From NCBI RefSeq assembly GCF_003264855.1, contig NZ_NFZS01000001.1, positions 930,001 through 994,000 on the forward strand: DNA of 64,000 nucleotides, read 5' to 3'. Made by a program: the position numbers and the translations under genes. How positions within the stretch are numbered: the first letter of the stretch is position 1; each line of letters starts with the position of its first letter. Positions 5,063 through 21,836 of this stretch are shown here, one piece after another. The notes beneath the pieces are model-generated. The model was not told the DNA's origin, did not search any database, and worked only from the letters and a program-made list of their open reading frames with translations. Source of the DNA: Dyella jiangningensis. GTDB taxonomy: Bacteria; Pseudomonadota; Gammaproteobacteria; Xanthomonadales; Rhodanobacteraceae.

Positions 5063-5077
5063 GAACGACTGCCGGAT

Positions 5078-5123
5078 CGTCCGCGGACGCTTGTCCGTCT
5101 GTCCGTGCCGGTGTCCGCGGACA
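5078..5123. promoter_or_regulatory. Candidate enhancer palindromes for a sigma-54 activator
   Basis: Two perfect 12-base palindromes, CGTCCGCGGACG (5078-5089) and TGTCCGCGGACA (5112-5123), have centres 34 bases apart, about three helical turns. Half-sites TGTCCG also occur at 5092, 5100 and 5126. They lie 67-112 bases upstream of the sigma-54 promoter, the usual place for NtrC-type activator sites. Identity of the binding protein is inferred; the response regulator gene at 19940 is the natural candidate. Confidence 0.65.
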
Positions 5124-5189
5124 ACTGTCCGCGCCGAGGCGACTCTGCTAAGTCGCTGAAAGTAAGCGATTAAATCATCGATTCCCGGT

Positions 5190-5205
5190 TGGCACGCCGC
5201 TTGCT
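5190..5205 (+). promoter_or_regulatory. Sigma-54 (-24/-12) promoter of the exporter operon
   Basis: TGGCAC-N5-TTGCT matches the RpoN consensus exactly, with GG at 5191-5192 and GC at 5203-5204 separated by the required 10 bases. Transcription should begin about 12 bases past the GC, leaving a leader of roughly 35 bases before the adaptor ATG at 5251. A further TGTCCGCGG half-palindrome (5228-5236) lies in that leader. Confidence 0.82.
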
Positions 5206-5250
5206 GACAGGGAACCAGGGGCCGCATTGTCCGCGGCCAGGGACACATCG

Positions 5251-6522
5251 ATGATTCGTGACACCTCCGCGCAAGACCGGCTGGTCGAAGTCAAACCCAA
5301 TCGCAAGCGCCGCGTGGTGCTGATCGGCGCCGGCGTCGCCGTACTGGCGCTGCTGGCGATCTTCGGCCCGCGCATCGGCCGCCTGTTTTCAGCGGACGCA
5401 TCCGTCAGCGCCTCGCGCCTTGCCTTCGCCACCGTGACGCGCGGCCCGTTCGTGCGCGACATCGCCGCCGAGGGCAAGGTGGTCGCCGCGGTGAGCCCGA
5501 CGATGTATGCCACCTACGGCGGCGCGGTCACGCTGAAGGTGCATGCCGGCGACGCGGTGAAGAAGGGCCAGGTGCTCGCCGTGATCGACAGCCCGGAGCT
5601 CACCAACAAGCTCGCGCAGGAACAGAGCGCCGCCGATGCGATGCAGGTGGACTACCTGCGCGCGCAGATCGATGCCCGCAAGACCCGCGGTGAACTGCAG
5701 AAGGCCTACGACAGCGCGCAGATCGACGAGCAGGGCGCGCAGCGCGACCTCACGCGCTACCAGAAGGCTTTCGCCCAGGGCGCCGTGCCGAGCATGAACG
5801 TGGACAAGGCCAAGGACGAGCTGGAGAAGTCGCGCATCACGCTGGCCCACGCCAAGGCCGACCTCGCCACCAATACCGACAGCCTCAACTTCGACATCCA
5901 GTCCAAGAAGCTCGCGCACGATCGCCAGCTGCTGCTGGTGAAGGACCTGCAGCGCCAAGTGGACGACCTCAATGTGAAGTCGCCGGTGGATGGCCAGGTC
6001 GGCCAGCTCTTCATCGCCGAGCGCGCCACGGTTGCCAAGGACGCACAGCTGCTCAGCGTCATTGACCTGAGCGCGCTGGAAGTGGAAATGAAGGTGCCGG
6101 AAAGCTTCGCGCGTGACCTGGGCATCGGCATGGCCGGCGAGATCAGCGGCAACGGCAGCGTGTGGAAGGGCCTGGTCAGCGCCATCTCGCCCGAAGTGGT
6201 GAACGGTGAAGTCGCCGCCCGCCTGCGCTTTGAGGGCACCACGCCCAAGCAGCTGCGCCAGAACCAGCGCCTGTCCGTGCGCATCCTGCTCGACAAGCGC
6301 GACAACGTGCTCACCGTGCAGCGCGGTTCGTTCGTCGACGAGTCCGGCGGCAGCTACGCCTACATCGTGCGCGACGGCGTCGCCGAAAAGCATCCGATCC
6401 GCGTCGGCACCAGCAGCATCGACAAGGTGGAGATCCTCGATGGCCTGAAGGAAGGCGACAACATCGTGATCTCCGGTACCGACAGCTTCAAGGGCGCCCA
6501 GCGCGTCGCCATCAGCAACTGA
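5251..6522 (+). CDS. HlyD/MacA-type periplasmic adaptor subunit of an ABC exporter
   Basis: A 423-residue membrane-fusion protein that would bridge inner-membrane permeases to the outer envelope. One N-terminal membrane helix (about residues 20-38) is followed by a lipoyl-like half motif VTLKVHAGDAVKKGQVLAVID near residue 92. A long charged coiled-coil hairpin covers about 115-245, then the second lipoyl half and beta-barrel domains. Start: ATG 5251 after AGGGA; a TTG at 5227 is also in frame. It is the first gene of the sigma-54 operon and is followed by the ATPase and eight permeases. No outer-membrane channel gene is present, so it may borrow a TolC-like partner. Confidence 0.88.
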   Translation: MIRDTSAQDRLVEVKPNRKRRVVLIGAGVAVLALLAIFGPRIGRLFSADASVSASRLAFATVTRGPFVRDIAAEGKVVAAVSPTMYATYGGAVTLKVHAGDAVKKGQVLAVIDSPELTNKLAQEQSAADAMQVDYLRAQIDARKTRGELQKAYDSAQIDEQGAQRDLTRYQKAFAQGAVPSMNVDKAKDELEKSRITLAHAKADLATNTDSLNFDIQSKKLAHDRQLLLVKDLQRQVDDLNVKSPVDGQVGQLFIAERATVAKDAQLLSVIDLSALEVEMKVPESFARDLGIGMAGEISGNGSVWKGLVSAISPEVVNGEVAARLRFEGTTPKQLRQNQRLSVRILLDKRDNVLTVQRGSFVDESGGSYAYIVRDGVAEKHPIRVGTSSIDKVEILDGLKEGDNIVISGTDSFKGAQRVAISN

Positions 6523-6533
6523 CGTGTTTTTCC

Positions 6534-6640
6534 TTCTCCCGCCGGGAGAAGGTGCCCGAAGGGCGGATGAGGGTACGGGGCTTGCGAATAGCGGCGGACC
6601 CGAACCCTCACCCCAACCCCTCTCCCGATGGGAGAGGGGC
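6534..6640. repeat. Intergenic hairpin repeats (CCCTCTCCC family)
   Basis: Two hairpins occupy the gap between adaptor and ATPase genes: TTCTCCCGCCGGGAGAA (6534-6550) and CCCCTCTCCCGATGGGAGAG (from 6616). The text ACCCTCACCCCAACCCCTCT between them is a second dispersed repeat family, also seen at 19707-19850 and 63580-63675. Inside an operon such elements may affect mRNA stability or ratios of products. Confidence 0.75.
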
Positions 6641-6670
6641 TTAAGAGATGCCACCACTGAGGAAGAACCC

Positions 6671-7393
6671 ATGCTCAAGATGACCCACCTGTCCAAGGTC
6701 TACCGCACCGAAGTGGTGGAGACCTATGCGTTGCGCGATTTCAACATCAACGTGAACGAAGGCGAGTTCGTGGCCGTGACCGGACCGTCCGGCTCGGGCA
6801 AGACCACCTTCCTCACCATTGCCGGCCTGCTCGAAACCTTCACTGGCGGCCAGTACCACCTCGATGGCGTGGAGGTGAGCAACCTCAACGACAACGAGCG
6901 CTCGAAGATCCGCAACGAGAAGATCGGCTTCATCTTCCAGGCGTTCAACCTGATCCCCGACCTCAACGTCTACGACAACGTCGAAGTGCCGCTGCGCTAT
7001 CGCGGCATGAAGGGCCCGGAGCGCAAGGACCGCATCATGAACGCGCTGGAGCGCGTCGGCCTGGCGTCGCGCGCCAAGCACTACCCGGCCGAGCTGTCGG
7101 GCGGCCAGCAGCAGCGCGTGGCGATCGCGCGCGCGCTGGCCGGCTCGCCGCGCCTGCTGCTGGCGGACGAACCGACCGGCAACCTGGACACGCAGATGGC
7201 CCGCGGCGTGATGGAGCTGCTGGAGGAGATCCATCGCGAAGGCGCCACCATCGTGATGGTGACGCACGATCCGGAACTCGCCGCACGCGCCCAGCGCAAC
7301 GTGCACATCATCGATGGCCAGGTGGTCGATCTGGCGGAAGACCCGCGCTTCCACCACGCGGTGCATTCGGCGCGCGCCAACTCGCCGGCCTGA
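6671..7393 (+). CDS. ABC exporter ATPase (MacB/LolD-type)
   Basis: A 240-residue nucleotide-binding subunit that powers the neighbouring permeases. Walker A is GPSGSGKTT (about residue 38), the Q-loop is [10 protein letters not shown], the ABC signature is LSGGQQQR (about 142), Walker B is [12 protein letters not shown] (about 162), and the H-loop is MVTHDP. This is the MacB/LolD subclass that drives mechanotransmission rather than classical transport. The ATG at 6671 follows GAGGAAG; the frame runs open further upstream through repeat sequence, which I reject. It is the only ATPase in a locus with eight permeases. Confidence 0.93.
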
Positions 7394-7448: not shown

Positions 7449-8762
7449 ATGTTCGCCTACTACCTCCAGCTTGGCCTGCGCAGCCTCCGGAAAAACCCGC
7501 TGTTGACTCTGCTCATGGTGTTGGCGATCGGTTGCGGCGTGGCCGCATCGATGACCACCTATTCGGTGTTCCGCGCGACGTCCAACAACCCGATCCCGCA
7601 GAAGTCGTCGCAGCTCTACGTGCCGCAGATCGACAACTGGGGGCCGGACTCCTCCAAGGACAACAAGGGCGAGCCGCCCAATGCGATGACGTACACCGAC
7701 GCCATCAACCTGATGCGCGACAAGCGTGCGAAACGCCAGACGGCCTTGTATCCGACCGCCATATCCATCGTGCCGGCCGATGCGTCGATGCTGCCGTTCC
7801 GCGAAACCAGCTACGGCTGGTACGCCGATGCCTTCGGCATGTTCGATGTTCCCTTCCAGTACGGCCAGGGCTGGACAGCCGGCGAGGACGAATCCCACGC
7901 CTCGGTGGCCGTCATCGGCAAGGCGCTCAACGAGAAGCTGTTCAATGGCGGCAACAGTGTCGGCAAGAACATCAACCTCAATGGCCGCGACTACCGCATC
8001 GTCGGCGTGGCCGACAAGTGGAATCCCGAGCCGGTGTTCTACGACGTCACCAATACCAACGGTTTCGATGATCCGATCCAGGTGTTCATCCCGTTCACGC
8101 GCGCCGTGGAATTGAAAACGCCGACCAGCGGCAACAACAACTGCAACCACGATCCGGGCAAGGGCTGGGACGAGTGGATCCGTTCCGAATGCGTGTGGCT
8201 GGGCTTCTGGGCCGAACTGCCGACCAAGGCCGAGGCCGATGCGTATCGCCAGTACCTCAATGGCTATTCCGCCGAACAGCAGCGCGCCGGCCGCTTCCGC
8301 TGGGCGCCCAACACGCGCCTGCGCAACGTCGTGGAATGGCTGGACTACCAGAAGGTCGTGCCGCAGGAAGCGAAGGTTTCGCTGATGGTGTCGCTGGGCT
8401 TCCTGCTGATCTGCCTGGTGAACACGGTGGGCCTGCTGCTGGCCAAGTTCATGCGTCGCTCCTCGGAGATCGGCGTGCGCCGCGCACTGGGTGCGACGCG
8501 CAAGGAGATCTACATCCAGTTCCTGATCGAAGCGGCGGCCATCGGTTTGGCCGGCGGCGTGGTGGGCCTGCTGCTCACGGGCCTGGGCGTGATGGGCGTG
8601 TCGCTGGTGTTCGAACCGGACATCGCCAAGCTCGCCACCTTGGACGTATCGCTGGTGCTGCTGACCGTTCTGGTCGCCATCCTGGCGACGGTGCTGGCGG
8701 CCTTCTATCCCACGTGGCGCGCCGCACAGGTGCAGCCGGCGTGGCAGCTGAAATCGAACTGA
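7449..8762 (+). CDS. ABC exporter permease, pair 1, type A (MacB-like)
   Basis: A 437-residue FtsX/MacB-type permease. One membrane helix at about residues 18-40 is followed by a large periplasmic domain (to about 310) and three helices near 315-340, 365-390 and 400-422. The family signature [21 protein letters not shown] follows helix 2. The ending [19 protein letters not shown] is shared by the first two type A copies. AAGGA at 7438-7442 precedes the ATG. It partners most likely with the type B permease encoded 4 bases downstream. Closest relative in the locus is the pair 2 type A protein (both share IPQKSSQL near residue 50). Confidence 0.9.
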
Positions 8763-8766
8763 GGCG

Positions 8767-10005
8767 ATGACCATGTTGCAGATCAAGCCCATTCTCGCCG
8801 CCCTCAAGCGCCACAAGGCCGGCACCGTCCTGATCGCCCTGCAGATCGCGCTGACACTCGCGATCGTTTGCAATGCGCTGTTCATCATCAGTCAACGCCT
8901 GGACCGCGTCCACCGGCCCACCGGCCTGGTGGAGAGCGATCTGATGGCGATCCAGAACCGCTTCGTCGGCACCGAGGAAAACAACGCCGCGCCGCTGATC
9001 AAGGCAGACCTCGTCGCGCTGCGCCAGCTCCCTGGCGTGCAGGACGTGGTGGCCATCAACTCCTATCCGTTGCGTGGCGGCGGCTGGTCGACCGGCGTGC
9101 GCACCGACGTGGACGCGAAGGACTCCAAGGCGCATACCACGCAGTACTTCGGAGACGAACATACCCTGGCGTCCATGGGGGTCCGCCTTGTCGAAGGGCG
9201 CAACTTCCGCTCGGACGAAATCGTGGAAGCCGATCCGCAGGCCATTCCCGATCCCGCGGCGATCATCGTGAGCAAGGCACTGGCCGACAAGATGTATCCC
9301 GACGGCCACGCGCTGGGCAAGACGCTCTACATCGGCGACTCCAAGAAGCCGAGCACCATCGTCGGCATCGTGGAGCGCCTGCAAGTGCCTTGGAATGGCA
9401 CCTGGTCCGATTCGTTCTACGAAAACTCGCTGATCCAGCCGGTGCAGCTGACCAGCGCGTTCACCAACTACCTGATCCGCGCCAAGCCCGGCCAGCTGGG
9501 CGACGTGCTGAAGGCGGCGCCGGCGGCGCTGGTGAAGGTGAACCGCATGCGTGTGATTCCGAGCGATCGCGGTGTGCGTACCTTTGCCGAAGTACGCGAG
9601 CACGCCTACAAGGGCGACCGCGGCATGGCGATCCTGATGGGCGTGGTGTGCCTGGTGCTGCTGGGCATCACCGCAGCGGGCATCGTGGGCCTCACCAGCT
9701 TCTGGGTTGGACAGCGCCGCAAGCAGATCGGCGTGCGCCGCGCGTTGGGCGCCACCAAGCACGACATCCTCAGCTACTTCCTCACCGAGAACCTGCTGAT
9801 CGGTGTGGCCGGCGTGGTGATCGGCGCGCTGCTGGCCATCGCCATGAACCTGTGGCTGGTGACGCAGTACGAGATGGCGCGTCTCTCCGTGCCCTACGTG
9901 TTGGTCGGCGTCGCTGCCCTGCTGTTGCTCGGGCAGGGCGCCACGCTGGCACCGGCCATGCGCGCCTCGCGCGTGTCACCGGTGGAGGCGACGCGCTCGG
10001 TGTAA
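8767..10005 (+). CDS. ABC exporter permease, pair 1, type B
   Basis: A 412-residue FtsX-type permease of the second kind in this locus. It starts with ILAALKRHKAGTVLIALQIA and one membrane helix, has a periplasmic domain of about 240 residues, then three helices with the signature [21 protein letters not shown]. It ends APAMRASRVSPVEATRSV. Only 4 bases separate it from the type A gene, implying translational coupling and a heterodimeric transmembrane unit. The periplasmic YPLRGGGW motif near residue 100 is shared with the pair 2 B protein but absent from pairs 3 and 4. Confidence 0.9.
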   Translation: MTMLQIKPILAALKRHKAGTVLIALQIALTLAIVCNALFIISQRLDRVHRPTGLVESDLMAIQNRFVGTEENNAAPLIKADLVALRQLPGVQDVVAINSYPLRGGGWSTGVRTDVDAKDSKAHTTQYFGDEHTLASMGVRLVEGRNFRSDEIVEADPQAIPDPAAIIVSKALADKMYPDGHALGKTLYIGDSKKPSTIVGIVERLQVPWNGTWSDSFYENSLIQPVQLTSAFTNYLIRAKPGQLGDVLKAAPAALVKVNRMRVIPSDRGVRTFAEVREHAYKGDRGMAILMGVVCLVLLGITAAGIVGLTSFWVGQRRKQIGVRRALGATKHDILSYFLTENLLIGVAGVVIGALLAIAMNLWLVTQYEMARLSVPYVLVGVAALLLLGQGATLAPAMRASRVSPVEATRSV

Positions 10006-10071
10006 CGAGGCGTCGTCCGCATGTCACGGAAGAATGTCATCGGCGGAGTCCGCAAGCGCAATGAGGTATCC

Positions 10072-11394
10072 ATGAGCGGCATGTTTGTCCACAACCTTCG
10101 GCTTGGCACCCACAGCCTGCGGCGCAATCCGCTGCTGACGGCGCTGATGATCATGTCGATCGGGTTTGGCGTGGCAGCGTCGATGGTGACGTACGCCGTG
10201 TTCCGCGCGGTATCGGGTGACCCGATACCGCAGAAGTCTTCCCAGCTGTTCGCGCCGCAGATCGACAACCGCGGCCCGCAGTACAACCGCGAGGGCGAGC
10301 CGCCCGATGCCCTTAACTACACCGACGCCATGGCGCTGATGCGCGCGCACAAGGCGCCGCGGCAGACCCTGTTGTTCCAGGTCGGTCTGTCGGTGACGCC
10401 CGAAGACTCGCACCGCATGCCATTCAAGGCCTTGGGTTATGCGACCTACGGCGATTTCTTCCCGATGTTCGACGTGCCATTCCAGTACGGCAACGGCTGG
10501 GGCGCGGAGCAGGACAACGGACGCGAGCCGGTGGTGGTGATCAGCCGCGCGCTCAACCAGAAGCTGTTCGGCGGCGAGAACAGCGTGGGGCGTCGCATCA
10601 CGTTGGAGGATCGCCAGTACCGTATCGTCGGCGTGACCGAGAACTGGGATCCCAAGCCACGCTTCTTCGACATGTTCAGCGGCAACGCGTACGCCGATCC
10701 GCCGCAGGTGTATATCCCGTTCACCTACGCGATCGACCAGCGCATCGATACCTACGGCAACAACAACTGCGGCAGCGATGGCAAGCGCGGCGACGACTTC
10801 GACAGCTGGCTGCGCGGCGAATGCGTGTGGATCAGCCCATGGGTGGAACTCAACACCGCCGATCAGGTGCAGGCGTACCGCCAGTTCCTCGATGGTTATG
10901 CCGAAGAGCAGCGCAAGGCCGGCCGCTTCAACTGGGCGCCGAACAACCGCCTGCGCGACGTGCATGCGTGGCTCGAGCACGAGCATGCGGTGCCGCCGGA
11001 AAGCCGCATCTCGCTGTCGCTGGCGCTCGGCTTCCTGGTGATCTGCCTGGTCAACACGATCGGCCTGCTGCTGGCGAAATTCATGCGGAGGGCTCCTGAA
11101 ATCGGCGTGCGTCGCGCCCTGGGTGCGTCACGCGCGGACATCTACCATCAGTTTCTCGCGGAGGCGGCGATGGTCGGCTTCGCCGGCGGCGTGCTCGGCC
11201 TCGTGCTGACCGGCGCCGGCATGTTCGGCGTCGGCCTGGTGTTCGAGCCGCAGATCGCGCGGCTGGCGCATCTGGACATCTCGCTGGTGTTGCTGACGCT
11301 GTTGCTGGCGATCACGGCGACCGTGCTGGCGGCCTTCTATCCCACATGGCGTGCAGCGCAGGTACAGCCTGCGTGGCAGCTGAAATCCAACTGA
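10072..11394 (+). CDS. ABC exporter permease, pair 2, type A
   Basis: A 440-residue MacB-like permease, paralogous to the pair 1 A protein along its length (shared SSQL-x-x-PQIDN, [35 protein letters not shown] and the same QPAWQLKSN end). Topology is one plus three membrane helices around a periplasmic domain. The frame is open from 10021, but GAGG at 10063 supports 10072; alignment to the sister copies would also allow ATG 10081. The gap to its type B partner is 9 bases. Confidence 0.88.
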   Translation: MSGMFVHNLRLGTHSLRRNPLLTALMIMSIGFGVAASMVTYAVFRAVSGDPIPQKSSQLFAPQIDNRGPQYNREGEPPDALNYTDAMALMRAHKAPRQTLLFQVGLSVTPEDSHRMPFKALGYATYGDFFPMFDVPFQYGNGWGAEQDNGREPVVVISRALNQKLFGGENSVGRRITLEDRQYRIVGVTENWDPKPRFFDMFSGNAYADPPQVYIPFTYAIDQRIDTYGNNNCGSDGKRGDDFDSWLRGECVWISPWVELNTADQVQAYRQFLDGYAEEQRKAGRFNWAPNNRLRDVHAWLEHEHAVPPESRISLSLALGFLVICLVNTIGLLLAKFMRRAPEIGVRRALGASRADIYHQFLAEAAMVGFAGGVLGLVLTGAGMFGVGLVFEPQIARLAHLDISLVLLTLLLAITATVLAAFYPTWRAAQVQPAWQLKSN

Positions 11395-11403
11395 GGCAAG
11401 GAG

Positions 11404-12639
11404 ATGACCGTGCAGATCAAGCCGATTCTCTCCGCGTTGCGCCGCCACAAGGCGGGTACGTTCCTGATCGCGATGCAGATCGCGTTGACGCTGGCGATCG
11501 TGTGCAACGCGCTGTTCATCATCCAGCAGCGCCTGGCGCACCTGTCCGAACCCACGGGCCTGGACGAGCCCGACATCTTCGTGGTGCAGAACGAATGGGT
11601 GGGCCAGGCCAACGCCGAGCAGGTCGACGCGAAGATGCGCGAAGACGTCAGCGTGCTGCGCGCCTTGCCCGGCGTGCAGGACGCCACGACGAGCAATTCC
11701 TATCCGCTGCGTGGCGGCGGCTGGGACGACGGCATCAAGCTCACGCCCGACCAGCTGCAGGACACCTCCGGTGCGGCGATCTACTTTGGCGATGACCATT
11801 TCATCGAGACGCTGGGCATCAAGCTGATCGCCGGCCGCAACTTCCGCGCCGAGGAGATCACGTCGATGAACGTGCGCGATCGCCTGAGCCCGCCCGTGGT
11901 GATCGTCACCAAGGCGCTGGCCGACAAGCTGTTTCCCGGCGGCGATGCGGTCGGCAAGACGATCTACCTGGTGGGCGGGCCGACCACCATCGTCGGCGTG
12001 GTCCAGCTGCTGCAATCGCAAAGCGTGGACCGCTGGGCGGCTGCGTTCGCCTATCGCTCGGTGATCGTGCCCAAGCGCCTGGCGATCTCGCTGGGTGGCT
12101 GGTACATCGTGCGTGCGCGACCAGGCCAGCTGGATGCGGTCATGCGCGCGGCGCCCAAGGCACTGTTCGAGCACAACCCGCGTCGCGTGATCAACGACGA
12201 CGATGGCGTGCTGAGCTTCAGCGAAGTGCGTTCGCGCGCCTACGAGCGTGATCGCGGCATGGCCATCCTGATGGGCGTGATCTGCGTGGTGCTGCTGGCC
12301 ATCACCGCGGCGGGCATCGTGGGCCTCACCAGCTTCTGGGTGGGCCAGCGCCGCAAGCAGATCGGTGTGCGCCGTGCGCTGGGCGCGACGCGGCAGGACA
12401 TCCTGCAGTACTTCATGACCGAGAACTTCCTGATCAGCTGCGGCGGCGTGGTGGTGGGCACCTTGCTCGCGGTGGCGATCAACCTGTGGCTGGTCACACG
12501 TTTCGAGATGCATCGCTTGTCGCTGGTGTACGTGCTGGTCGGCGTGGTGATCCTGTTGTTGCTTGGGCAGGGCGCGGTGTTGGCGCCGGCGATGCGCGCC
12601 TCGCGCGTGCCGCCGGTGGAAGCCACGCGGTCGGTGTGA
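11404..12639 (+). CDS. ABC exporter permease, pair 2, type B
   Basis: A 411-residue permease closely similar to the pair 1 B protein: the same MxxQIKPIL-x-ALRRHKAG start, the YPLRGGGW motif, [35 protein letters not shown], and the ending ASRVPPVEATRSV. Four membrane helices in the 1+3 arrangement enclose a periplasmic domain. AAGGAG abuts the start. Most divergence from pair 1 is in the periplasmic domain (residues 45-270), where substrate contacts would be expected. Confidence 0.9.
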   Translation: MTVQIKPILSALRRHKAGTFLIAMQIALTLAIVCNALFIIQQRLAHLSEPTGLDEPDIFVVQNEWVGQANAEQVDAKMREDVSVLRALPGVQDATTSNSYPLRGGGWDDGIKLTPDQLQDTSGAAIYFGDDHFIETLGIKLIAGRNFRAEEITSMNVRDRLSPPVVIVTKALADKLFPGGDAVGKTIYLVGGPTTIVGVVQLLQSQSVDRWAAAFAYRSVIVPKRLAISLGGWYIVRARPGQLDAVMRAAPKALFEHNPRRVINDDDGVLSFSEVRSRAYERDRGMAILMGVICVVLLAITAAGIVGLTSFWVGQRRKQIGVRRALGATRQDILQYFMTENFLISCGGVVVGTLLAVAINLWLVTRFEMHRLSLVYVLVGVVILLLLGQGAVLAPAMRASRVPPVEATRSV

Positions 12640-12672
12640 CCGCGCGGCATACGAGGGAAAGAGGGGAAGCCT

Positions 12673-13977
12673 ATGTTCAGTTATTACCTGGATCTCGCGC
12701 TGCGCAGCCTGCGTCGCAATCGGGTCCTGACCGCGCTGATGGTGCTGGCCATCGCGCTGGGCATCGGCGCCAGCATGACCACGCTGACCGTGCTGCACGT
12801 GTTGTCGGGTGATCCGCTGCCCGGCTCCAGCGGCACGCTGTTCTATCCGCAGATCGATCCACGCGATATGGACGGCTATGAGCCGGACAAGGAGCCGCCG
12901 CGCCAGGTGACCTGGACGGACGGGCAGAACCTGATGCGCGCCAAGCGCGGCGATCGACAGGCATTGATGACCGGTGGCGCCGTGCCCGTGCAGCCTGCGC
13001 AGTCGAGCGTCGAACCGTTCTACAGCGACGCGCGCTACACCACCAGCGACTTCTTCCCGATGTTCAAGGTGCCGTTCCTCTACGGCCATGGCTGGAGTGC
13101 ATCGGACGACGAAAGCAAGGCGCGCGTGGTGGTGATCACGCGTACGCTCAACGACAAGCTGTTCGGCGGCAAAGACAGCACCGGTCAGACCCTGCGCATG
13201 AAGGACCTCGCCTTCCAGGTGATCGGCGTGCTCGATACGTGGCGTCCGAATCCGCACTTCTACGATGTGTACATGGGCAACTATGCGGCCGCGGAAGACG
13301 TGTTCGTGCCGCTGTCGACCTCGCGCGATGCGCACTTCGACCACAACGGTTCCACCGATTGCTGGGGCACCGGCGGTGGCGACCAGGAGCATGCCGAGAC
13401 CTCGCCCTGCGTGTGGCTGCAATTCTGGGTGCAGCTGGACAGCGCCGCCAAGGTCGCTGCCTACAAGGAATTCCTGGTGCATTACTCGCAGGACCAGAAG
13501 AGCCTCGGCCGCTTCGAACGTCCGCCGAACGTGCGTCTGCCCGACCTGATGGCATGGCTGGACATCAACAAGGTCGTGCCGGGTGATGTTCGCCTGCAGA
13601 CCTGGCTGGCCTTTGGTTTCCTGCTGGTGTGCCTGGTCAATACGGTGGGACTGATGCTGGCGAAATTCCTGCGCCGCGCCGGTGAACTCGGCGTGCGTCG
13701 CGCGCTGGGCGCATCGAAGCGCGAAGTATTTGCGCAGTTGCTGGTGGAGTCGGGCGTGATCGGCCTGGCAGGCGCCATCGGCGGGTTGCTGCTGGCCTTC
13801 CTCGGCCTGTGGCTGGTGCGGCTGCAGCCGTCCAGCTACGCATCGCTGGCCCATCTCGACCTGAAGATGCTGTTGATCACCTTCGTGCTGGCCATCGGTT
13901 CCACCTTGCTGGCGGGCCTGCTGCCGGCATGGCGAGCGTGCCAGATCACCCCCGCGCTGCAACTCAAGAGCCAGTGA
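12673..13977 (+). CDS. ABC exporter permease, pair 3, type A
   Basis: A 434-residue MacB-like permease. It begins MFSYYLDLALRSLRRN and shares SGDPLPG and FYPQIDP (about residues 45-60) with the pair 4 A protein, setting these two apart from pairs 1 and 2. Signature: [21 protein letters not shown]. The last segment is LLPAWRACQITPALQLKSQ. Topology is one N-terminal helix, a periplasmic domain with two Cys (CWGTGG and SPCVW regions), then three helices. The gap to its type B partner is 16 bases. Confidence 0.9.
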   Translation: MFSYYLDLALRSLRRNRVLTALMVLAIALGIGASMTTLTVLHVLSGDPLPGSSGTLFYPQIDPRDMDGYEPDKEPPRQVTWTDGQNLMRAKRGDRQALMTGGAVPVQPAQSSVEPFYSDARYTTSDFFPMFKVPFLYGHGWSASDDESKARVVVITRTLNDKLFGGKDSTGQTLRMKDLAFQVIGVLDTWRPNPHFYDVYMGNYAAAEDVFVPLSTSRDAHFDHNGSTDCWGTGGGDQEHAETSPCVWLQFWVQLDSAAKVAAYKEFLVHYSQDQKSLGRFERPPNVRLPDLMAWLDINKVVPGDVRLQTWLAFGFLLVCLVNTVGLMLAKFLRRAGELGVRRALGASKREVFAQLLVESGVIGLAGAIGGLLLAFLGLWLVRLQPSSYASLAHLDLKMLLITFVLAIGSTLLAGLLPAWRACQITPALQLKSQ

Positions 13978-13993
13978 GGAAGAGGCCCTAACC

Positions 13994-15217
13994 ATGGAAA
14001 TCCTGCCCATCCTTTCCACGTTGCGCCGCCACAAGATCACCGCGTTCCTGGTGATCATCGAGATCGCGCTCACCTGCGCCATCGTGTGCAATGCGGTGTT
14101 CATCATCAATCAGCGGCTGGACCGCATGAACATGCCGAGCGGCGTGGACGAGCACCGGCTCGTGCACATCGGGCTGGCGGACATCGGCGTGACCAAGGAC
14201 CAGAAGGCGCGCACCGCCGAGGACATCGCCGCCTTGCGGCAGATCCCCGGCGTGGCCGAGGTGGCCTCGCTGAACCAGGTGCCGTTCGGCAATTCCTCGT
14301 CCAACGGGGGCATCAAGCTCGACCCCAAGCAGAACCTGTCCACGCTCAATGCCACCATGTATTCCGGCGAGAACCTGGTGCGCGGACTGGGGCTGCAGCT
14401 GGTCGCGGGCCGCGAGCTGCAGCCCGACGATTACATGGACTCCGACGTCGTGATGCGTGCGGTGCACGAGCGCGACACCAAGTCGATTCCCCATGTGATC
14501 ATGATCACCGAGAACATGGCGCAGCGTTTGTGGCCGGGGCAGCAGGCGCTCGGCAAGCAGATCTATCTGTCCGATATCCCGCTGACGGTGGTGGGCGTCG
14601 TGAAGGAGCTGGTGCGGCCGTCCATCTGGGACGACTCGGCCAAGAGCTACAGCATGATCCTGCCTATGCGTGAAGCCCAGGGCGAGTACATGATCCGCAC
14701 CAAGACGCCGCAGGACCGCGATCGCGTGCTGGCGGCGGCGCTGACCAAGCTCAAGGAAATCAATCCGCATCGCGTGGTGCTGAAGAAGCACACCTTCGAC
14801 GACATGCGCCACGACTTCTTCCAGAACGACCGCGCCATGGCCGGCCTGCTGGTGGGCGTGTGCGTGGCGCTGCTGGTGGTGACCGCATTGGGCATCGTCG
14901 GCCTGGGCAGCTTCTGGGTGGCGCAGCGCCGGCGGCAGATCGGCGTGCGCCGCGCGCTGGGCGCCACGCGCAGCAACATCCTGCGTTACTTCCAGACCGA
15001 GAACTTCCTGCTTGCCACCATCGGCATCGCGCTAGGCATGGTGCTGGCCTACGGCATCAACCTGCTGCTGATGGTGCATTACGAGCTGCCGCGGCTGCCG
15101 GCGATCTACTTCCCGGTGGGGGCGCTCCTGCTGTGGGTGATCGGACAGCTGGCCGTGCTCGGCCCGGCCATGCGCGCGGCAGCGGTACCGCCGGTGGTGG
15201 CGACGCGGTCGGTGTGA
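13994..15217 (+). CDS. ABC exporter permease, pair 3, type B
   Basis: A 407-residue FtsX-type permease. The N-terminus ILSTLRRHKITAFLVIIEIA and the SGVDEH motif after helix 1 match the pair 4 B protein rather than pairs 1 and 2. Signature: [21 protein letters not shown]; the ending is GPAMRAAAVPPVVATRSV. Four helices are expected, with the periplasmic domain at about residues 40-275. It lies tightly within the operon and needs the single upstream ATPase for function. Confidence 0.9.
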   Translation: MEILPILSTLRRHKITAFLVIIEIALTCAIVCNAVFIINQRLDRMNMPSGVDEHRLVHIGLADIGVTKDQKARTAEDIAALRQIPGVAEVASLNQVPFGNSSSNGGIKLDPKQNLSTLNATMYSGENLVRGLGLQLVAGRELQPDDYMDSDVVMRAVHERDTKSIPHVIMITENMAQRLWPGQQALGKQIYLSDIPLTVVGVVKELVRPSIWDDSAKSYSMILPMREAQGEYMIRTKTPQDRDRVLAAALTKLKEINPHRVVLKKHTFDDMRHDFFQNDRAMAGLLVGVCVALLVVTALGIVGLGSFWVAQRRRQIGVRRALGATRSNILRYFQTENFLLATIGIALGMVLAYGINLLLMVHYELPRLPAIYFPVGALLLWVIGQLAVLGPAMRAAAVPPVVATRSV

Positions 15218-15259
15218 TCCACCGGCCGCACGGAGTAGGAAAGACAAGGAGCGCAGTGG

Positions 15260-16582
15260 ATGTTCGTTTATTACCTTGACCTGGCGTTTCGCAGCCTGCG
15301 TCGCAACACGATGCTCACGGCCCTGATGGTGCTGGCCATCGCCGTGGGCATCGGCGCGAGCATGACAACGCTGACGGTGACGCATCTGTTGTCCGGCGAT
15401 CCTTTGCCGGGCCGCAGCCAACACATCTTCTATCCGCAGGTGGATCCCGATCCGAAGCGCACGGATGACAAGGAGCCCTACGACAAGCTCGACTATCAGT
15501 CGGCGGTGGACCTGTGGAGCGCGCATCGCGCGGACCGTCAGGCCATCGTCGTCGACAGCCGGCTGAAACTCAGCGATCCCGCCAGCGGCGCGCCGCCGAT
15601 CATGGCGATGATGCTGTCCACCACGGCGGACTTCTTTCCGATGTTCGACGTGCCCTTCCAATACGGTGCGGGATGGAGTGCGCAGGACGATGCGTCGCGC
15701 GCACGCGTCGCCGTGATCAGCGCCGATCTCAACCAGAAACTGTTCGCCGGCGCCAACAGCGTCGGCCGCACGCTGCGCCTGCGCAACAGCGACGTGCGCA
15801 TCGTCGGCGTACTCAAGCCATGGCGGCCGTCGCCGCAGTTCTACATGGTCGCGGGCGGCCGCTTCGCCAACGGCGACACCGCCGATTACTACAGCAAGAC
15901 CGAAGACGTCATCACGCCGTTCTTCACCGGCCTGGACATCAACGACGGCAGCTTCTGGCAGTTCACCTGCTGGAGCCTGCCCGCCCGCACGGGCCATCTG
16001 CAGGATGCGCCCTGTGTGTGGCTGGGCCTGTGGGTACAGCTCGACAACGCGGCCAAGGTCGCCGGCTACCGTCGCTTCGTCGCCGACTATGCGGCACAGC
16101 AGAAATCGCTGGGCCGCTTCACGCATGCGGGCAATGCGCGCATGCGCAGCCTGATGGAGTGGCTGGATTTCAACGGCGTGGTGCCATCGGATGTGCGCCT
16201 GCAGACCTGGCTGTCGTTTGCGTTCCTCACCATCTGCCTGTTCAACACGGTCGGCCTGCTGCTGGCGAAGTTCCTGCGCCGCAGTGGCGAGATCGGCGTG
16301 CGACGCGCGCTCGGTGCGAGCCGTGCCGCGGTGTTCGCGCAATGCATGGTGGAGTCGGCGGTGATCGGGTTGATCGGCGGCCTGTTTGGCTTGCTGCTGA
16401 CGCTGCTGGGCTTGTGGCTGGTGCGCCAGCAACCGGTGGCCTATGCGGACCTCGCACGGCTGGACGTGCCGATGTTCCTGCTCACCTTCGCGCTTGCCGT
16501 GGGCACCAGCGTGCTGGCCGGCGTGCTTCCTGCGTTGCGCGCCTGCCGCGTGGCGCCGGCGTGGCAGTTGAAGACCCTGTGA
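15260..16582 (+). CDS. ABC exporter permease, pair 4, type A
   Basis: A 440-residue MacB-like permease most similar to the pair 3 A protein (MFxYYLDLAxRSLRRN start, SGDPLPG, FYPQVDP). It differs from all sisters by an insert near residues 195-235 containing GGRFANGDTADYYSKTED. Signature: [21 protein letters not shown]. The end is ACRVAPAWQLKTL. Topology is 1+3 helices with a periplasmic domain. A 42-base gap separates it from the preceding gene and 10 bases from its type B partner. Confidence 0.9.
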   Translation: MFVYYLDLAFRSLRRNTMLTALMVLAIAVGIGASMTTLTVTHLLSGDPLPGRSQHIFYPQVDPDPKRTDDKEPYDKLDYQSAVDLWSAHRADRQAIVVDSRLKLSDPASGAPPIMAMMLSTTADFFPMFDVPFQYGAGWSAQDDASRARVAVISADLNQKLFAGANSVGRTLRLRNSDVRIVGVLKPWRPSPQFYMVAGGRFANGDTADYYSKTEDVITPFFTGLDINDGSFWQFTCWSLPARTGHLQDAPCVWLGLWVQLDNAAKVAGYRRFVADYAAQQKSLGRFTHAGNARMRSLMEWLDFNGVVPSDVRLQTWLSFAFLTICLFNTVGLLLAKFLRRSGEIGVRRALGASRAAVFAQCMVESAVIGLIGGLFGLLLTLLGLWLVRQQPVAYADLARLDVPMFLLTFALAVGTSVLAGVLPALRACRVAPAWQLKTL

Positions 16583-16592
16583 GGAGCCGATA

Positions 16593-17804
16593 ATGGATTT
16601 TGCCCCGATCCTCGCCGCGTTGCGCCGTCATCGCACGGCGACCCTGGTCATCGCGCTGGAAATCGCGTTGGCTTGCGCCGTGCTGTGCAATGCATGTTTC
16701 CTCATTGCGTCGCGCATCGGCCTGATGCAGATCGAAAGTGGCGTGGACGAATCCTCGCTCGCCCTGGTCAAGCTCGATTGCGACGACTGCAACAGCAGCG
16801 ATCTCAATGCGCGGGTGATGGCGGCACTGCGCGCCGTGCCTGGCGTGCAGTCAGTGGCCGCGGTCAACACGCTGCCGTTCGGCGAGCGCGCCGGCGACAA
16901 CGGCGTCACCATCGATCGTGAGCATTACGTTGCTGTGCCTCATTTCTATCTCGGTGGACCTGGCGCAGCCGAGACGCTCGGTTTGCATCTCGCGGAAGGC
17001 CAGCCCTTCCAACCGGAAGATTTCCGCACGGGCGATGTCTGGGTGCCGGCCGATACGCCGGTGTGGATCAGCCGCACGCTGGCCGAGAAGTTGTGGCCAG
17101 GGCAATCCGCTTTGGGCAAGGAATTTTGGGTCACCGACAAGTTCCATTTCCGCGTGGTCGGCGTGCTGGCACACCTGGTGCGGCCCGACCCCGGCGGAAC
17201 GCGTGGCAGCGGTGCCGCGGAATGGTCGGTGTTCGCACCGATGGCGCCGGGCAAGGTGTTGAATGGCAGCTACGCGATTCGCGCCGCGCCCGCCGACCTT
17301 CCACGCGTATTGCGCGAGGCACGCGAGGCAGCACAGAAGGCGGCGCCCGAAGCGGTGCTCGACCTGACGCAAAGCCGCACGGTGTCCGACCTTCGCAGCG
17401 ATTTCTTTCGACCCAGTCGCAGCATGGCTGGCATGCTGGTGGGCGTGATCGTGGCGCTGCTGCTGGTGACGGCGCTGGGCATCGTCGGCCTCGCGAGTTT
17501 CTGGGTGCAGCAGCGGCGCAAGCAGATCGGCATCCGCCGCGCCATTGGTGCGACGCGGCAGGACATCCTGCGCTACTTCCAGACCGAGAACTTCCTCATC
17601 GTCACCGGCGGCATCGCCGTCGGCCTGGCCATGGCCGTCGTGCTCAATGCCGTGCTGATGAAGTTCTATGAATTGCCCCGGTTGCCGGTGGCCTACCTGC
17701 CCATCAGCGCGGTGGTGCTGTGGCTGCTGGGCCAGCTCGCCGTGCTGGGCCCGGCCTTGCGCGCGGCGGCGGTGCCGCCGGTGGTAGCCACGCGCTCGGT
17801 GTAG
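16593..17804 (+). CDS. ABC exporter permease, pair 4, type B
   Basis: A 403-residue FtsX-type permease and the last of the eight. It carries SGVDES after helix 1, as in pair 3, and a cysteine-bearing KLDCDDCNSSD segment near residue 60 that none of the other B proteins has. Signature: GIRRAIGATRQDILRYFQTEN; the ending GPALRAAAVPPVVATRSV nearly matches pair 3. The operon probably ends here: a GCACGGG/CCCGTGC hairpin without a T-run follows at 17830-17856. Confidence 0.9.
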   Translation: MDFAPILAALRRHRTATLVIALEIALACAVLCNACFLIASRIGLMQIESGVDESSLALVKLDCDDCNSSDLNARVMAALRAVPGVQSVAAVNTLPFGERAGDNGVTIDREHYVAVPHFYLGGPGAAETLGLHLAEGQPFQPEDFRTGDVWVPADTPVWISRTLAEKLWPGQSALGKEFWVTDKFHFRVVGVLAHLVRPDPGGTRGSGAAEWSVFAPMAPGKVLNGSYAIRAAPADLPRVLREAREAAQKAAPEAVLDLTQSRTVSDLRSDFFRPSRSMAGMLVGVIVALLLVTALGIVGLASFWVQQRRKQIGIRRAIGATRQDILRYFQTENFLIVTGGIAVGLAMAVVLNAVLMKFYELPRLPVAYLPISAVVLWLLGQLAVLGPALRAAAVPPVVATRSV

Positions 17805-17890: not shown

Positions 17891-19693
17891 ATGAAGATCG
17901 GACCGCGAATGCTCGTGATGGGCGTGCTGTCGGTGGCCTGCGCCGCCTCGGTGCAAGCCGCCACGGCGGATGTGCCCACCCGCGTGAAGGCCCTTAACGG
18001 TCTGCTCGCCGAGCAGTGGCAGCACACGCTGGAAAACTCGCCGGAGTTCGCCACGATCCTTGGCGACCTGCGCTACAACGACCGCTGGAGCGACGCCTCG
18101 CTGGCCAACCAGCAGGCCGAATACAACAAGACCAAGGATTTCCTCAGCCGCTTCCAGGCCATCGACACCACCGGCTTTTCGGAAGAAGACAAGCTCAACC
18201 AGCAGCTGATGGTCCGCCAGCTGCAGGATTCGCTGAAAGCGCACGACCTGAAGATCGACGAGATGCCGCTGGAGCAGATGAGCGGCGTGCACCTGCGCCT
18301 GGCCGGCTTCGTCAGCTCGATTCCGTTCAACACCACCAAGGAGTACGACGATTACCTGGCGCGCCTGAAGGCGGTGCCGAAGCTGCTCGACCAGGTGACC
18401 GAGGTCGCACGCCAGGGCATGAAGGACGGCATGATGCCGCCCAAGTACCTGCTGGATAAGGTGGTGGTGCAGATCGACAGCATCGCCAAGCCCGCCGGCA
18501 TGGACAGCGTGTTCGCCGAGCCGCTGAAGCACTTCCCCAAGTCGGTGTCCGCGGCCGACCAGAAGCGCCTGCATGACGCCATCCTCGCCGCGATCGACCA
18601 GCAGGTGCGTCCGGCCTACCAGAAGCTCGGCCAGTTCGTGGCCAAGGATTACGCGCCGCACGGCCGCACCGAGCCGGGCGTGTGGCAGCTGCCCAACGGC
18701 GATGCGATCTATCGCTTCCAGGCCGAGCAGATGACCACCACCAAGGAAACGCCGGAGCGCATCCACGAGATCGGCCTGTCCGAGGTGAAGCGCATCGAAG
18801 GCGAGATGACCGCCATCGCCAAGTCGCAGGGCTTCAAGGACCTGGCCAGCTTCCGCGAATCGCTGAAGACCAACCCCAAGACCCACGCGACCTCGCGCGA
18901 GGACATCCTCAACCGCTATCGCACCTACATCGCCGGCATGCAGCCGGAGCTGCCCAAGCTGTTCGGCCTGCTGCCCAAGACCCAGGTGCAGGTGGTGCCG
19001 GTGGAAGCCTTCCGCGAGAAGGAAGCCGCCGCCGCCGAGTACCAGCAGGGCACGCCGGACGGTTCGCGTCCGGGCAAGGTATTCGTCAACACGGGTGACT
19101 TCGCCAACCGCAGCGTGCTGACCATCGAGTCCACCGCCTACCACGAAGGCGTGCCGGGCCATCACATGCAGATCTCGATCGCGCAGACGCTGCCGGGCCT
19201 GCCGCCGTTCCGCCAGCAGGCGGGCTACAACGCCTACATCGAAGGCTGGGCGCTGTATGCCGAGCGCCTGGGCAAGGACATCGGCTTCTACAAGGACCCT
19301 CTGTCCGACTACGGCCGCCTCTCCGACGAACTGTTGCGTGCCGACCGCCTCGTGCTCGACACCGGCGTGCACTACAAGCACTGGTCGCGCCAGCAGATGG
19401 TGGACTTCTTCCACCAGCACTCCAGCGAGGATGAGCCGGACGTGCAGGCCGAAACCGACCGCTACATCACCTGGCCGGGCCAGGCGCTGGCCTACAAGAT
19501 GGGCCAGCTGAAGATCCTGGAGCTGCGTGAGCGTGCCAAGAAGGAGCTGGGCGACAAGTTCGACATCCGCTCCTTCCACGATGAGATCCTGGGCGGCGGC
19601 GCACTGCCGCTGGACGTGCTGGAAGCGCGTACCGACGCCTGGATCGCCGACCTGAAGTCGGGCAAGGCACCGGCACATCCGGCCAAGGGCTGA
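17891..19693 (+). CDS. DUF885 family secreted metallopeptidase-like protein
   Basis: A 600-residue protein with a clear signal peptide (cleavage near Ala-Ala-Thr, about residue 24). It contains the family hallmark HEGVPGHH at about residues 418-425, a variant HEXXH zinc site, followed by the conserved Y-x-EGWALYAERL segment whose Glu is a likely third ligand. Members of DUF885 are related to M32-type carboxypeptidases; activity of most is unproven. It lies 86 bases after the last exporter permease on the same strand, so it may process a peptide handled by the exporter. That link is inferred only from position. Confidence 0.85.
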   Translation: MKIGPRMLVMGVLSVACAASVQAATADVPTRVKALNGLLAEQWQHTLENSPEFATILGDLRYNDRWSDASLANQQAEYNKTKDFLSRFQAIDTTGFSEEDKLNQQLMVRQLQDSLKAHDLKIDEMPLEQMSGVHLRLAGFVSSIPFNTTKEYDDYLARLKAVPKLLDQVTEVARQGMKDGMMPPKYLLDKVVVQIDSIAKPAGMDSVFAEPLKHFPKSVSAADQKRLHDAILAAIDQQVRPAYQKLGQFVAKDYAPHGRTEPGVWQLPNGDAIYRFQAEQMTTTKETPERIHEIGLSEVKRIEGEMTAIAKSQGFKDLASFRESLKTNPKTHATSREDILNRYRTYIAGMQPELPKLFGLLPKTQVQVVPVEAFREKEAAAAEYQQGTPDGSRPGKVFVNTGDFANRSVLTIESTAYHEGVPGHHMQISIAQTLPGLPPFRQQAGYNAYIEGWALYAERLGKDIGFYKDPLSDYGRLSDELLRADRLVLDTGVHYKHWSRQQMVDFFHQHSSEDEPDVQAETDRYITWPGQALAYKMGQLKILELRERAKKELGDKFDIRSFHDEILGGGALPLDVLEARTDAWIADLKSGKAPAHPAKG

Positions 19694-19939: not shown

Positions 19940-21280
19940 ATGCGAACCGTACTGATCATCGACGACAACCCGGCCGTGGGCGAGGCGCTCTCGCTGGCGC
20001 TGTCCCTGCATGAAATCCGCCCGCTGATCGCGCTGACGCCCGAGCAAGGCCTGGAGATGCTGGAGCGCGACCGTGTCGACGTGGTGATCCAGGATATGAA
20101 CTTCACCGCCGACACCACCTCGGGCGAGGAGGGCATCGCGCTGTTTCGTGCGATCCGCCAGCGCCATGCGGACCTGCCGGTGATCCTGCTCACCGCCTGG
20201 ACGCACCTGGAAACCGCGGTGGAACTGGTGAAGGCCGGTGCTGCCGACTATCTCGCCAAGCCGTGGGACGACGCCAAGCTGCTGGCCACGGTGGAAAACC
20301 TGCTGGAGCTGTCCGAATCCACGCGCGAAGTGACGCGCGCCCGCAACGAGCGTCGCAAGCGTCGTGAAGACCTGCAGCGTCGCTACGACCTCGACAGCCT
20401 CGTGTTTGCCTCCGAAGCGATGGCCCGCACGCTGGACCTCGCCTGCCAGGTGGCACGTTCGGATGTACCCGTGCTCATCACCGGTCCCAATGGCGCCGGC
20501 AAGGAGCGCATTGCGGCCATCGTCCACGCCAACTCGGCGGTGAAGCGCGGTGCGTTCATCGCGGTCAACTGCGGCGCGTTGCCGGGCGAGCTGATCGAAG
20601 CCGAGCTGTTCGGCGCCGAAGCCGGCGCGTACACCGGCGCCAACAAGGCGCGTGAAGGTCGTTTCGAGATGGCCGATGGCGGCACGCTGTTCCTGGACGA
20701 AATCGGCAACCTGCCGCTGTCGGGCCAGGTGAAGCTGCTACGCGTGCTGGAAACGGGACAATTCGAACGCCTGGGCTCGGGCCGCACGCGTCATGTGAAG
20801 GTGCGCGTGCTGAGCGCGACCAACGCCGACCTCAAGGCGATGATCCGCGCGGGCACCTTCCGCGAAGACCTGTATTACCGACTCAACGTCATCGAAGTGA
20901 ACCTGCCGCCGCTGGCCGAGCGCGTGGACGACATCCTGCCGCTGGCCGATCACTTCCTGGGCGGCCGCGCCGAACTCACCGAAGCCGCGCGCGAATCGCT
21001 GCTGGCCTATCCCTGGCCGGGCAACGTGCGCGAGCTGAAGAACGCCATCGAGCGCGCCGCACTGCTGGCCGGCGACGGCCGCATCACGCCCGAGCAGCTC
21101 AACCTGCCGCAGATGGCGCCCGCCGCCAACCGCAACCTCGACGAACCGAGCCGCGAGTCGGTGGAGGCTGCGCTGGAGCATGCCGGTGGCGTCGTAAGCC
21201 GCGCCGCGCAGGCCCTGGGCCTCTCGCGCCAGGCGCTGTACCGCCGCATGGAACGCTACGGCCTCGCGCAGGCGTCATAA
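19940..21280 (+). CDS. NtrC-family sigma-54 response regulator
   Basis: A 446-residue transcription activator. Residues 1-120 form a receiver domain, with the acidic pair in IIDDN and the phospho-acceptor Asp in VVIQDMNF (about residue 53). A charged linker leads to the AAA+ domain. Walker A is GPNGAGKE, where most family members read GESGTGKE; the sigma-54 contact loop is GAYTGA instead of GAFTGA; Walker B is GGTLFLDEIG. The Fis-type helix-turn-helix is at the end (AAQALGLSRQALYRRM). ATG 19940 or 19925 could be the start. The matching kinase gene follows at 21837, and the sigma-54 promoter at 5190 is the likely target. Confidence 0.9.
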   Translation: MRTVLIIDDNPAVGEALSLALSLHEIRPLIALTPEQGLEMLERDRVDVVIQDMNFTADTTSGEEGIALFRAIRQRHADLPVILLTAWTHLETAVELVKAGAADYLAKPWDDAKLLATVENLLELSESTREVTRARNERRKRREDLQRRYDLDSLVFASEAMARTLDLACQVARSDVPVLITGPNGAGKERIAAIVHANSAVKRGAFIAVNCGALPGELIEAELFGAEAGAYTGANKAREGRFEMADGGTLFLDEIGNLPLSGQVKLLRVLETGQFERLGSGRTRHVKVRVLSATNADLKAMIRAGTFREDLYYRLNVIEVNLPPLAERVDDILPLADHFLGGRAELTEAARESLLAYPWPGNVRELKNAIERAALLAGDGRITPEQLNLPQMAPAANRNLDEPSRESVEAALEHAGGVVSRAAQALGLSRQALYRRMERYGLAQAS

Positions 21281-21312
21281 CCGTCCCGCCCTCCATTGTG
21301 GGGACATATCGT

Positions 21313-21424
21313 TGTAGGAGCGCACCCTGTGCGCGACCGCGGCGCTGCGGTGTATCCACCATGTCCGGCTGTCGCGATAACTGCTCCGCTCCGTCGGCTG
21401 TCGCGCACAGGGTGCGCTCCCACA
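21313..21424. repeat. Paired palindromic repeat (CCCTGTGCG variant)
   Basis: A forward TGTAGGAGCGCACCCTGTGC and inverted GCACAGGGTGCGCTCCCACA pair separated by about 60 bases, between the regulator gene and the small secreted protein gene. Here the core is CCCTGTGCG rather than CCCAGTGCG, and both arms carry the matching change. Confidence 0.88.
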
Positions 21425-21511
21425 GTTGGGGAATGGCGCCTCCCATCCGTCATGATTGCCGTCGCACGGCAGGCCGAGGATGATGTGCCCTGTGCCGATG
21501 GAGTCCGCACC

Positions 21512-21808: not shown

Positions 21809-21836
21809 TGCCGTTTCATTTCAAGGAAATCCGTTG

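What the first reader, a model, noticed from the sequence alone, without database searches (positions are those of the whole stretch)
5078..5237. Consensus sigma-54 promoter with two perfect palindromes controls an eight-permease exporter
TGGCAC-N5-TTGCT (5190-5205) is an exact RpoN promoter. Palindromes CGTCCGCGGACG and TGTCCGCGGACA are centred 34 bp apart and about 73-107 bp upstream, and a half-site lies in the leader. An NtrC-type regulator and PAS kinase are encoded at the far end of the same locus. The data predict a dedicated, signal-switched exporter.
Basis: partly seen in the sequence, partly recalled or inferred. Interest (0 to 1): 0.78.

Follow-up and report, generated by a model that had tools for sequence, protein, structure and literature searches.

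The report
Sigma-54 regulon: exporter plus tiny peptides
The reported promoter is real and turns out to be one copy of a conserved genetic switch that, in Dyella-type soil bacteria, appears to turn on a modular membrane exporter together with an uncatalogued family of tiny membrane peptides and several peptide-cutting enzymes.

Summary
In detail: TGGCAC-N5-TTGCT at 5190-5205, with two perfect palindromes centred 34 bp apart upstream. In 80 of 80 orthologous loci the adaptor gene has a sigma-54 box and at least two TGTCCG/CGGACA half-sites; 67 of 80 keep the GTCCGCGGAC core.

The composite element (core, about 67 bp, sigma-54 box) occurs 284 times in 96 of 117 family genomes, with 0 reversed controls. 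It heads a regulon: the adaptor operon, orphan permease pairs, hydrolases, and 28 to about 75 aa single-helix peptides without match in Pfam, NCBIfam or PADLOC. Spacers carry IHF-like sites at fixed places; spacing variants differ by about whole helical turns.

The 'leader half-site' is better read as part of an RNA hairpin whose arms covary.

Permeases come in pairs, 1 to at least 6, sharing one adaptor and one ATPase. Control by the locus's own NtrC-type regulator is likely but inferred; 3 of 4 family genomes without the adaptor, in which no regulator orthologue was found, keep composite sites. What the peptides do is open.

The parts
5078..5089 (.). upstream palindrome CGTCCGCGGACG (distal operator); in relatives this place holds variable TGTCCG half-sites
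5092..5105 (+). two direct TGTCCG half-sites (5092-5097, 5100-5105), at -98 and -90 from the T of TGGCAC, positions favoured across the regulon
5112..5123 (.). core operator TGTCCGCGGACA, 66-67 bp before the sigma-54 box
5126..5131 (+). further TGTCCG half-site (-64)
5171..5183 (-). IHF-like site (one mismatch to WATCAANNNNTTR, consensus recalled) in the spacer; the commonest IHF-like place in relatives lies about 20 bp further upstream
5190..5205 (+). sigma-54 promoter box TGGCAC-N5-TTGCT
5251..6522 (+). HlyD/RND-type periplasmic adaptor (MIRDTSAQDR...), MacA-like C-terminal half
6524..7393 (+). ABC ATPase, best NCBIfam score DarD (255.9 bits, under its cut-off of 375); the true start is probably about 150 nt further in
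7449..17804 (+). eight MacB_PCD/FtsX permeases in four pairs (7449-8762, 8767-10005; 10021-11394, 11404-12639; 12673-13977, 13994-15217; 15260-16582, 16593-17804)
17891..19693 (+). DUF885 protein with signal-peptide-like start and HEGVPGHH motif (putative secreted metallohydrolase; reading of the motif is mine)
19940..21280 (+). NtrC-type response regulator (receiver, sigma-54 activator, Fis-type HTH with SRQALYRR); the open frame begins at 19769, likely start ATG 19940
21834..23216 (+). sensor kinase, two N-terminal hydrophobic stretches with a short gap between them, HAMP, PAS, HATPase

Best explanation
The element is the main promoter of a sigma-54 regulon. Shown by sequence: an array of TGTCCG half-sites with a TGTCCGCGGACA core, an AT-rich spacer with an IHF-like site, a sigma-54 box, and in the adaptor operon a leader hairpin before the ribosome-binding site. 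Inferred: the kinase at 21834 senses an envelope signal and phosphorylates the regulator at 19940; this binds the half-sites on one face of the helix, IHF bends the spacer, and the activator's ATPase opens the sigma-54 polymerase. Output: one adaptor and one ATPase shared by interchangeable MacB-type permease pairs (four here, 1 to at least 6 in relatives, and orphan pairs elsewhere), plus tiny single-helix peptides and several envelope hydrolases and peptidases. Most likely the system exports or handles peptides or hydrophobic compounds at the inner membrane, and the tiny peptides are either its lineage-specific cargo or its small membrane subunits; I hold these two about equally likely. Confidence below is for the regulon and its control by the locus's own regulator, not for the peptides' role.
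For: 284 composite matches in 96 of 117 genomes with 0 reversed controls. 80 of 80 adaptors with strict box; half-sites 4.2 per upstream against 0.10 in mononucleotide shuffles. Spacing: adaptors 64-70 bp in 84 of 98 and 55-58 in 14 of 98; peptides 65-70 in 77 of 77 (the pattern allowed 50-80); 35-36, 56 and 79 in five loci of a further target: steps of about 10.5 bp. Half-sites favour -78, -90, -98/-100, -111. IHF-like sites within one mismatch in 59 of 98 adaptor and 29 of 77 peptide spacers, 3.8 and 3.7 expected from dinucleotide shuffles, 42 of 59 and 24 of 29 at one place. Recognition helix SRQALYRR in 53 of 56 linked regulators (the other 3 lie at the end of the stretch held) and 7 of 7 Lysobacteraceae loci, but in none of 5 other regulators of this genome. 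In two genomes where the regulator is not beside the exporter it is elsewhere at 72-73% identity and the adaptor still has its sites. Order-wide, composite sites in 26 of 86 genomes with the adaptor, 1 of 65 without. Peptides: 27 of 30 best loci have the composite promoter directly upstream, the other 3 are the second peptide of a tandem; codon-position changes 104/26/302.
Against: No binding or expression data. G023, G097 and G100 lack the adaptor and show no regulator orthologue (best 39-47% identity), yet have 2, 1 and 1 composite matches, and G023 a peptide behind one; relics or another regulator. 13 of 80 adaptors lack the intact core, with half-sites arranged otherwise. One G023 match precedes an unrelated-looking gene, and matches in Mycolicibacterium, Pirellulales and others look like chance. 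Peptides are nearly confined to one family (20 of 25 sampled genomes there, 1 borderline of 126 elsewhere in the order) while the exporter is order-wide, so they are not its only business.
Confidence: 0.82

Rival explanations
1. The promoter is sigma-54-dependent but the TGTCCG sites are bound by another enhancer-binding protein, not by the regulator of this locus.
For: 3 of 4 adaptor-less genomes, without a regulator orthologue, keep composite sites; one keeps a peptide.
Against: Regulator linked to the exporter in 56-57 of 80 stretches, most of the rest ending inside the permease array; its recognition helix is conserved together with the half-site across two families, and none of the 9 other regulators checked in two genomes has it.
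Confidence: 0.13
2. The tiny peptides are cargo: inserted or secreted by Sec, the two-cysteine class closed by a disulfide, then expelled by the MacB-like pairs as toxins or signals.
For: Shared promoter. The long class ends in a C-x8-C loop (CALPPDGVVC). [quoted passage not shown] Permease pairs against peptides per genome: Spearman 0.61 in 56 genomes, phylogeny not corrected.
Against: 28-37 aa members have no tail, only the helix. The exporter exists without them in other families. No cleavage shown.
Confidence: 0.35
3. The tiny peptides are small membrane subunits or feedback regulators of the permeases or the kinase.
For: The helix is the conserved part (E4, L8, M26 invariant, C19 in 90% or more of 46), tails vary or are missing.
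Against: Long class keeps a conserved two-cysteine tail; copy number up to 10 is odd for a subunit.
Confidence: 0.35
4. The leader copy of the palindrome is a repressor half-site.
For: TGTCCG is kept there in 40 of 98 adaptor leaders.
Against: Arms change together (G-C to A-U 5 and 7 times, C-G to U-A 3 times), 0 of 77 peptide leaders have it. Caveats: 43 of 80 leaders were picked for the stem, and folding energies of all 80 are not unusual (median z -0.3).
Confidence: 0.12

Closest known systems
MacAB-type (type VII ABC) exporters; DarD darobactin exporter ATPase
   Same: HlyD/MacA-like adaptor, LolD/MacB/DarD-like ATPase, MacB_PCD+FtsX permeases
   Different: ATPase and permeases are separate genes; one adaptor and ATPase for 1 to at least 6 permease pairs; scores under the DarD and DarC cut-offs; no TolC gene among the operon genes examined
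BceRS-BceAB peptide-sensing modules
   Same: MacB-architecture transporter beside a two-component system (review passages, PMC5985334)
   Different: NtrC-type regulator and sigma-54 instead of an OmpR-type regulator (recalled); periplasmic adaptor; PAS kinase; tiny co-regulated peptides
GlrR/QseF sigma-54 response regulator, site TGTC-N10-GACA
   Same: TGTC...GACA dyads before a sigma-54 promoter under a two-component NtrC-type activator (passages of PMC4987338 and PMC8745638)
   Different: core is TGTC-N4-GACA in arrays; GlrR targets shown there are the small RNAs glmY and glmZ; GlrR model scores 292 bits here against a cut-off of 763
Sec-exported disulfide peptides handled by MacB homologues (STII, SDP)
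   Same: small peptides with one Cys-Cys pair in the long class
   Different: no sequence similarity tested or known to me; short classes have no tail

Membership tests
sigma-54-dependent promoter | TGGCAC-N5-TTGC[AT] -24/-12 box | tested here: met
   exact at 5190-5205; strict TGGCA[CT]-N5-TTGC in 80 of 80 orthologues; consensus recalled
sigma-54-dependent promoter | transcription lost in an rpoN mutant | not testable with these tools
   needs a mutant
sigma-54-dependent promoter | upstream activator sites with a bending-protein site between them and the box | tested here: met
   half-sites; IHF-like enrichment
NtrC-type response regulator | receiver + sigma-54 activation domain + Fis-type HTH | tested here: met
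   PF00072, PF00158, PF02954
AtoC, NtrC, GlrR, ZraR equivalogs | score above NCBIfam cut-off | tested here: not met
   best AtoC 359 bits against a cut-off of 714; GlrR 292/763; ZraR 279/760
MacAB-type tripartite exporter | MacA-like adaptor, MacB_PCD/FtsX permease, LolD-class ATPase | tested here: met
MacAB-type tripartite exporter | ATPase fused to the permease (MacB proper) | tested here: not met
   separate genes; permeases are 400-457 aa without ABC_tran match
MacAB-type tripartite exporter | outer-membrane TolC partner | not tested
   no TolC match among the genes scanned in the locus; genome not searched
darobactin exporter DarBCD | equivalog cut-offs | tested here: not met
   DarD 255.9/375, DarC 82.5/450, DarB 10.8/700
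GlrR operator | TGTC-N10-GACA | tested here: not met
   core here TGTC-N4-GACA
known small-peptide families | match in a curated library | tested here: not met
   three peptides against NCBIfam, two against Pfam and PADLOC, profile against PDB chains at E up to 1: none; PHROGs not searched

The most novel reading that the evidence does not exclude
A Gram-negative peptide communication or antagonism system: one signal-switched sigma-54 regulon makes a diversifying family of tiny secreted or membrane peptides together with a modular exporter in which interchangeable permease pairs, sharing one adaptor and one ATPase, each serve different peptides, and with secreted peptidases that trim or clear them.
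Probability: 0.27. Interest if true: 0.88.

Novelty: new variant of a known kind. Interest (0 to 1): 0.64.

Why it matters
It turns one promoter into a family-wide regulon with a sharp, testable sequence signature, exposes a family of 28 to about 75 aa peptides that the curated libraries tried here do not hold, and shows an ABC exporter layout in which one ATPase and adaptor appear to serve many permease pairs. The shared promoter gives a direct way to ask what such MacB-like arrays carry, and which signal switches them.

Tried and rejected
Sigma-54 box as evidence by itself: rejected, one-mismatch matches are no more frequent than chance. Leader copy as operator: rejected in favour of the hairpin. 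An outer leader helix hiding the ribosome-binding site: only 55% of cells pair, so not claimed; folding energies of all 80 leaders are ordinary (median z -0.3, 6 of 80 below -2). Rfam on 4900-5500: one sub-threshold match that is chance. Peptide tails as the universal cargo: weakened by tail-less members. Palindrome at C1:502181 (L057): no sigma-54 box found by the scan there, left out; C1:309000-325000 (L060): CGTCCGCGGACG in what looks like coding DNA, left out.

Literature: ten searches of the held open-access library found no paper listing that describes this regulon or the peptides; of the papers listed I saw only passages of PMC4987338, PMC5985334 and PMC8745638 and listings of the rest. 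Subscription papers and preprints are not covered.

Not used: structure prediction, fold search, the search for related loci, viral and metagenome scans, PHROGs.

Full report
1. The observation. The sigma-54 box at 5190-5205 and both palindromes are exactly as stated. The box alone is no better than chance in 64 kb. The palindrome TGTCCGCGGACA occurs exactly at four places in the genome; one of them, on contig C6, has the same layout in front of a 69-aa peptide gene, which is what opened the case.

2. Conservation. The adaptor is found in 113 of 117 genomes of the family and 86 of 151 of the order. I fetched 80 loci from 25 genera and read the 350 bases before each adaptor: 80 of 80 have a strict TGGCA[CT]-N5-TTGC box, 80 of 80 at least two half-sites, 77 of 80 three or more, 67 of 80 the intact core. 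The 13 without the core come from genera g5, g9, g16 and g26 and carry half-sites in another arrangement. Six Lysobacteraceae-type loci (family f2) outside the family, looked at one by one, have TGTCC/GGACA-type sites and a sigma-54-like box as well, some boxes with C or G in place of the first T of TTGC.

3. A regulon. The pattern GTCCGCGGAC-N50-80-TGGCAY-N5-TTGC has 284 matches in 96 of 117 genomes and none when read backwards. From all loci in hand I took 214 distinct sites (identical sites counted once; the set is weighted to adaptors because many loci were fetched by adaptor): 98 adaptors, 77 tiny peptides, 10 permeases, 8 alpha/beta hydrolases, 16 other, 5 none. 'Other' holds one more peptide, one more hydrolase and a DUF885 gene, and also matches in unrelated taxa that look like chance. 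In this genome the targets are the adaptor, an alpha/beta hydrolase, a 52-aa and a 69-aa peptide and, with a weaker box and 36-bp spacing, a 76-aa protein whose relatives (5 of 114 genomes) all have palindrome and box.

4. Promoter anatomy. Half-sites sit at about -78, -90, -98/-100 and -111 from the T of TGGCAC. The core-to-box gap is 64-70 in 84 of 98 adaptors and 55-58 in 14 of 98; 65-70 in 77 of 77 peptides; 35-36, 56 and 79 in the 76-aa target. The variants differ by about whole turns. IHF-like sites (recalled consensus WATCAANNNNTTR) within one mismatch: 59 of 98 adaptor spacers (3.8 expected), 29 of 77 peptide spacers (3.7 expected), at fixed places. This is the classical activator - bend - sigma-54 layout.

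5. Leader. GGCCGC-N7-GCGGCC lies before the AGGGA ribosome-binding sequence. On 43 of 80 leaders, picked because the stem was visible, 94.9% of cells pair, 15 cells are changed on both sides, and the covariation score beats 500 of 500 shuffles and every slide; the count of pairs changed on both sides does not beat the shuffles (196 of 500 reach it). Relatedness can inflate the shuffle test. Folding energy is ordinary. I read it as a real small hairpin of unknown effect, perhaps on mRNA stability or translation.

6. Exporter. Every locus examined has one adaptor and one ATPase followed by permeases of alternating long and short type. In the 56 loci that I counted, whose regulator was reached (of 80; L087 left out), the permease number is even in 54. 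It runs from 2 to 12. Ten composite sites head permease genes elsewhere; none has adaptor or ATPase in the 1.5-6.5 kb held, and in the five with 2 kb or more a pair is seen. So pairs look like modules working with a shared ATPase and adaptor; this is inference.

7. Regulator. It is seen in 56-57 of 80 stretches at 68-94% identity; most other stretches end within long permease arrays. In two genomes of genus g9 it is unlinked but present at 72-73%. SRQALYRR of its HTH is found in 53 of the 56 loci (the other three lie at the stretch's end), in 7 of 7 Lysobacteraceae loci, and in none of 5 other regulators of this genome or 4 of G023. Against it: of four family genomes without the adaptor, three have composite matches although no regulator orthologue was found in any.

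8. Peptides. They occur in 74 of 117 family genomes, 1 to 10 each, and hardly elsewhere in the order (20 of 25 family genomes, 1 borderline of 126 others). Three classes: 28-37 aa, helix only; 42-53 aa with an A/S/P/V-rich tail; 62 to about 75 aa with a C-x8-C tail, CALPPDGVVCPR. Invariant in 46: E4, L8, M26; C19 in 90% or more. Nine genus-level orthologues over 35 codons show 104/26/302 changes by codon position and 250 synonymous to 80 non-synonymous single changes: coding and constrained. Genes next to them include NlpC/P60, M23, beta-lactamase-fold and other hydrolases in some genomes, mostly nothing constant.

9. Reading. A signal-switched sigma-54 regulon for handling peptides or hydrophobic compounds at the envelope. 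Cargo or subunit for the peptides is open. Known parts, new assembly: I class it as a new variant of a known kind.

Noticed in passing
window 5220-5238 and orthologous leaders: Covarying hairpin before the ribosome-binding site of the adaptor; absent or different in several genera.
   Followed up: partly
G000:C1:1177025-1177252 (L389): 76-aa protein ('RLPW' type) with palindrome and a weak sigma-54 box at 36-bp spacing; relatives in 5 of 114 genomes all have both.
   Followed up: partly
L177, L254, L198, L217, L227: Orphan permease pairs behind the same promoter without adaptor or ATPase in the stretch held.
   Followed up: partly
G023:C1:2504432-2504706: Genome without adaptor and without a regulator orthologue keeps one peptide with a composite promoter.
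   Followed up: partly
G177:C23:6950, G183:C433:3083: Composite sites in another family of the order whose spacer resembles that of the short-peptide promoters; downstream gene not read.
   Followed up: no
L059, L189, L307 and L180, L186, L188, L223, L297: Two-cysteine peptides sit next to a TrmL-like RNA methyltransferase gene or an ALETALNH protein that looks like UbiJ (names from memory) in several genera: a conserved chromosomal place.
   Followed up: no
window 21296-21808: 170-aa open frame between regulator and kinase, no family match, found only in genus g1 among the 80 loci at the tblastn cut-off used.
   Followed up: no
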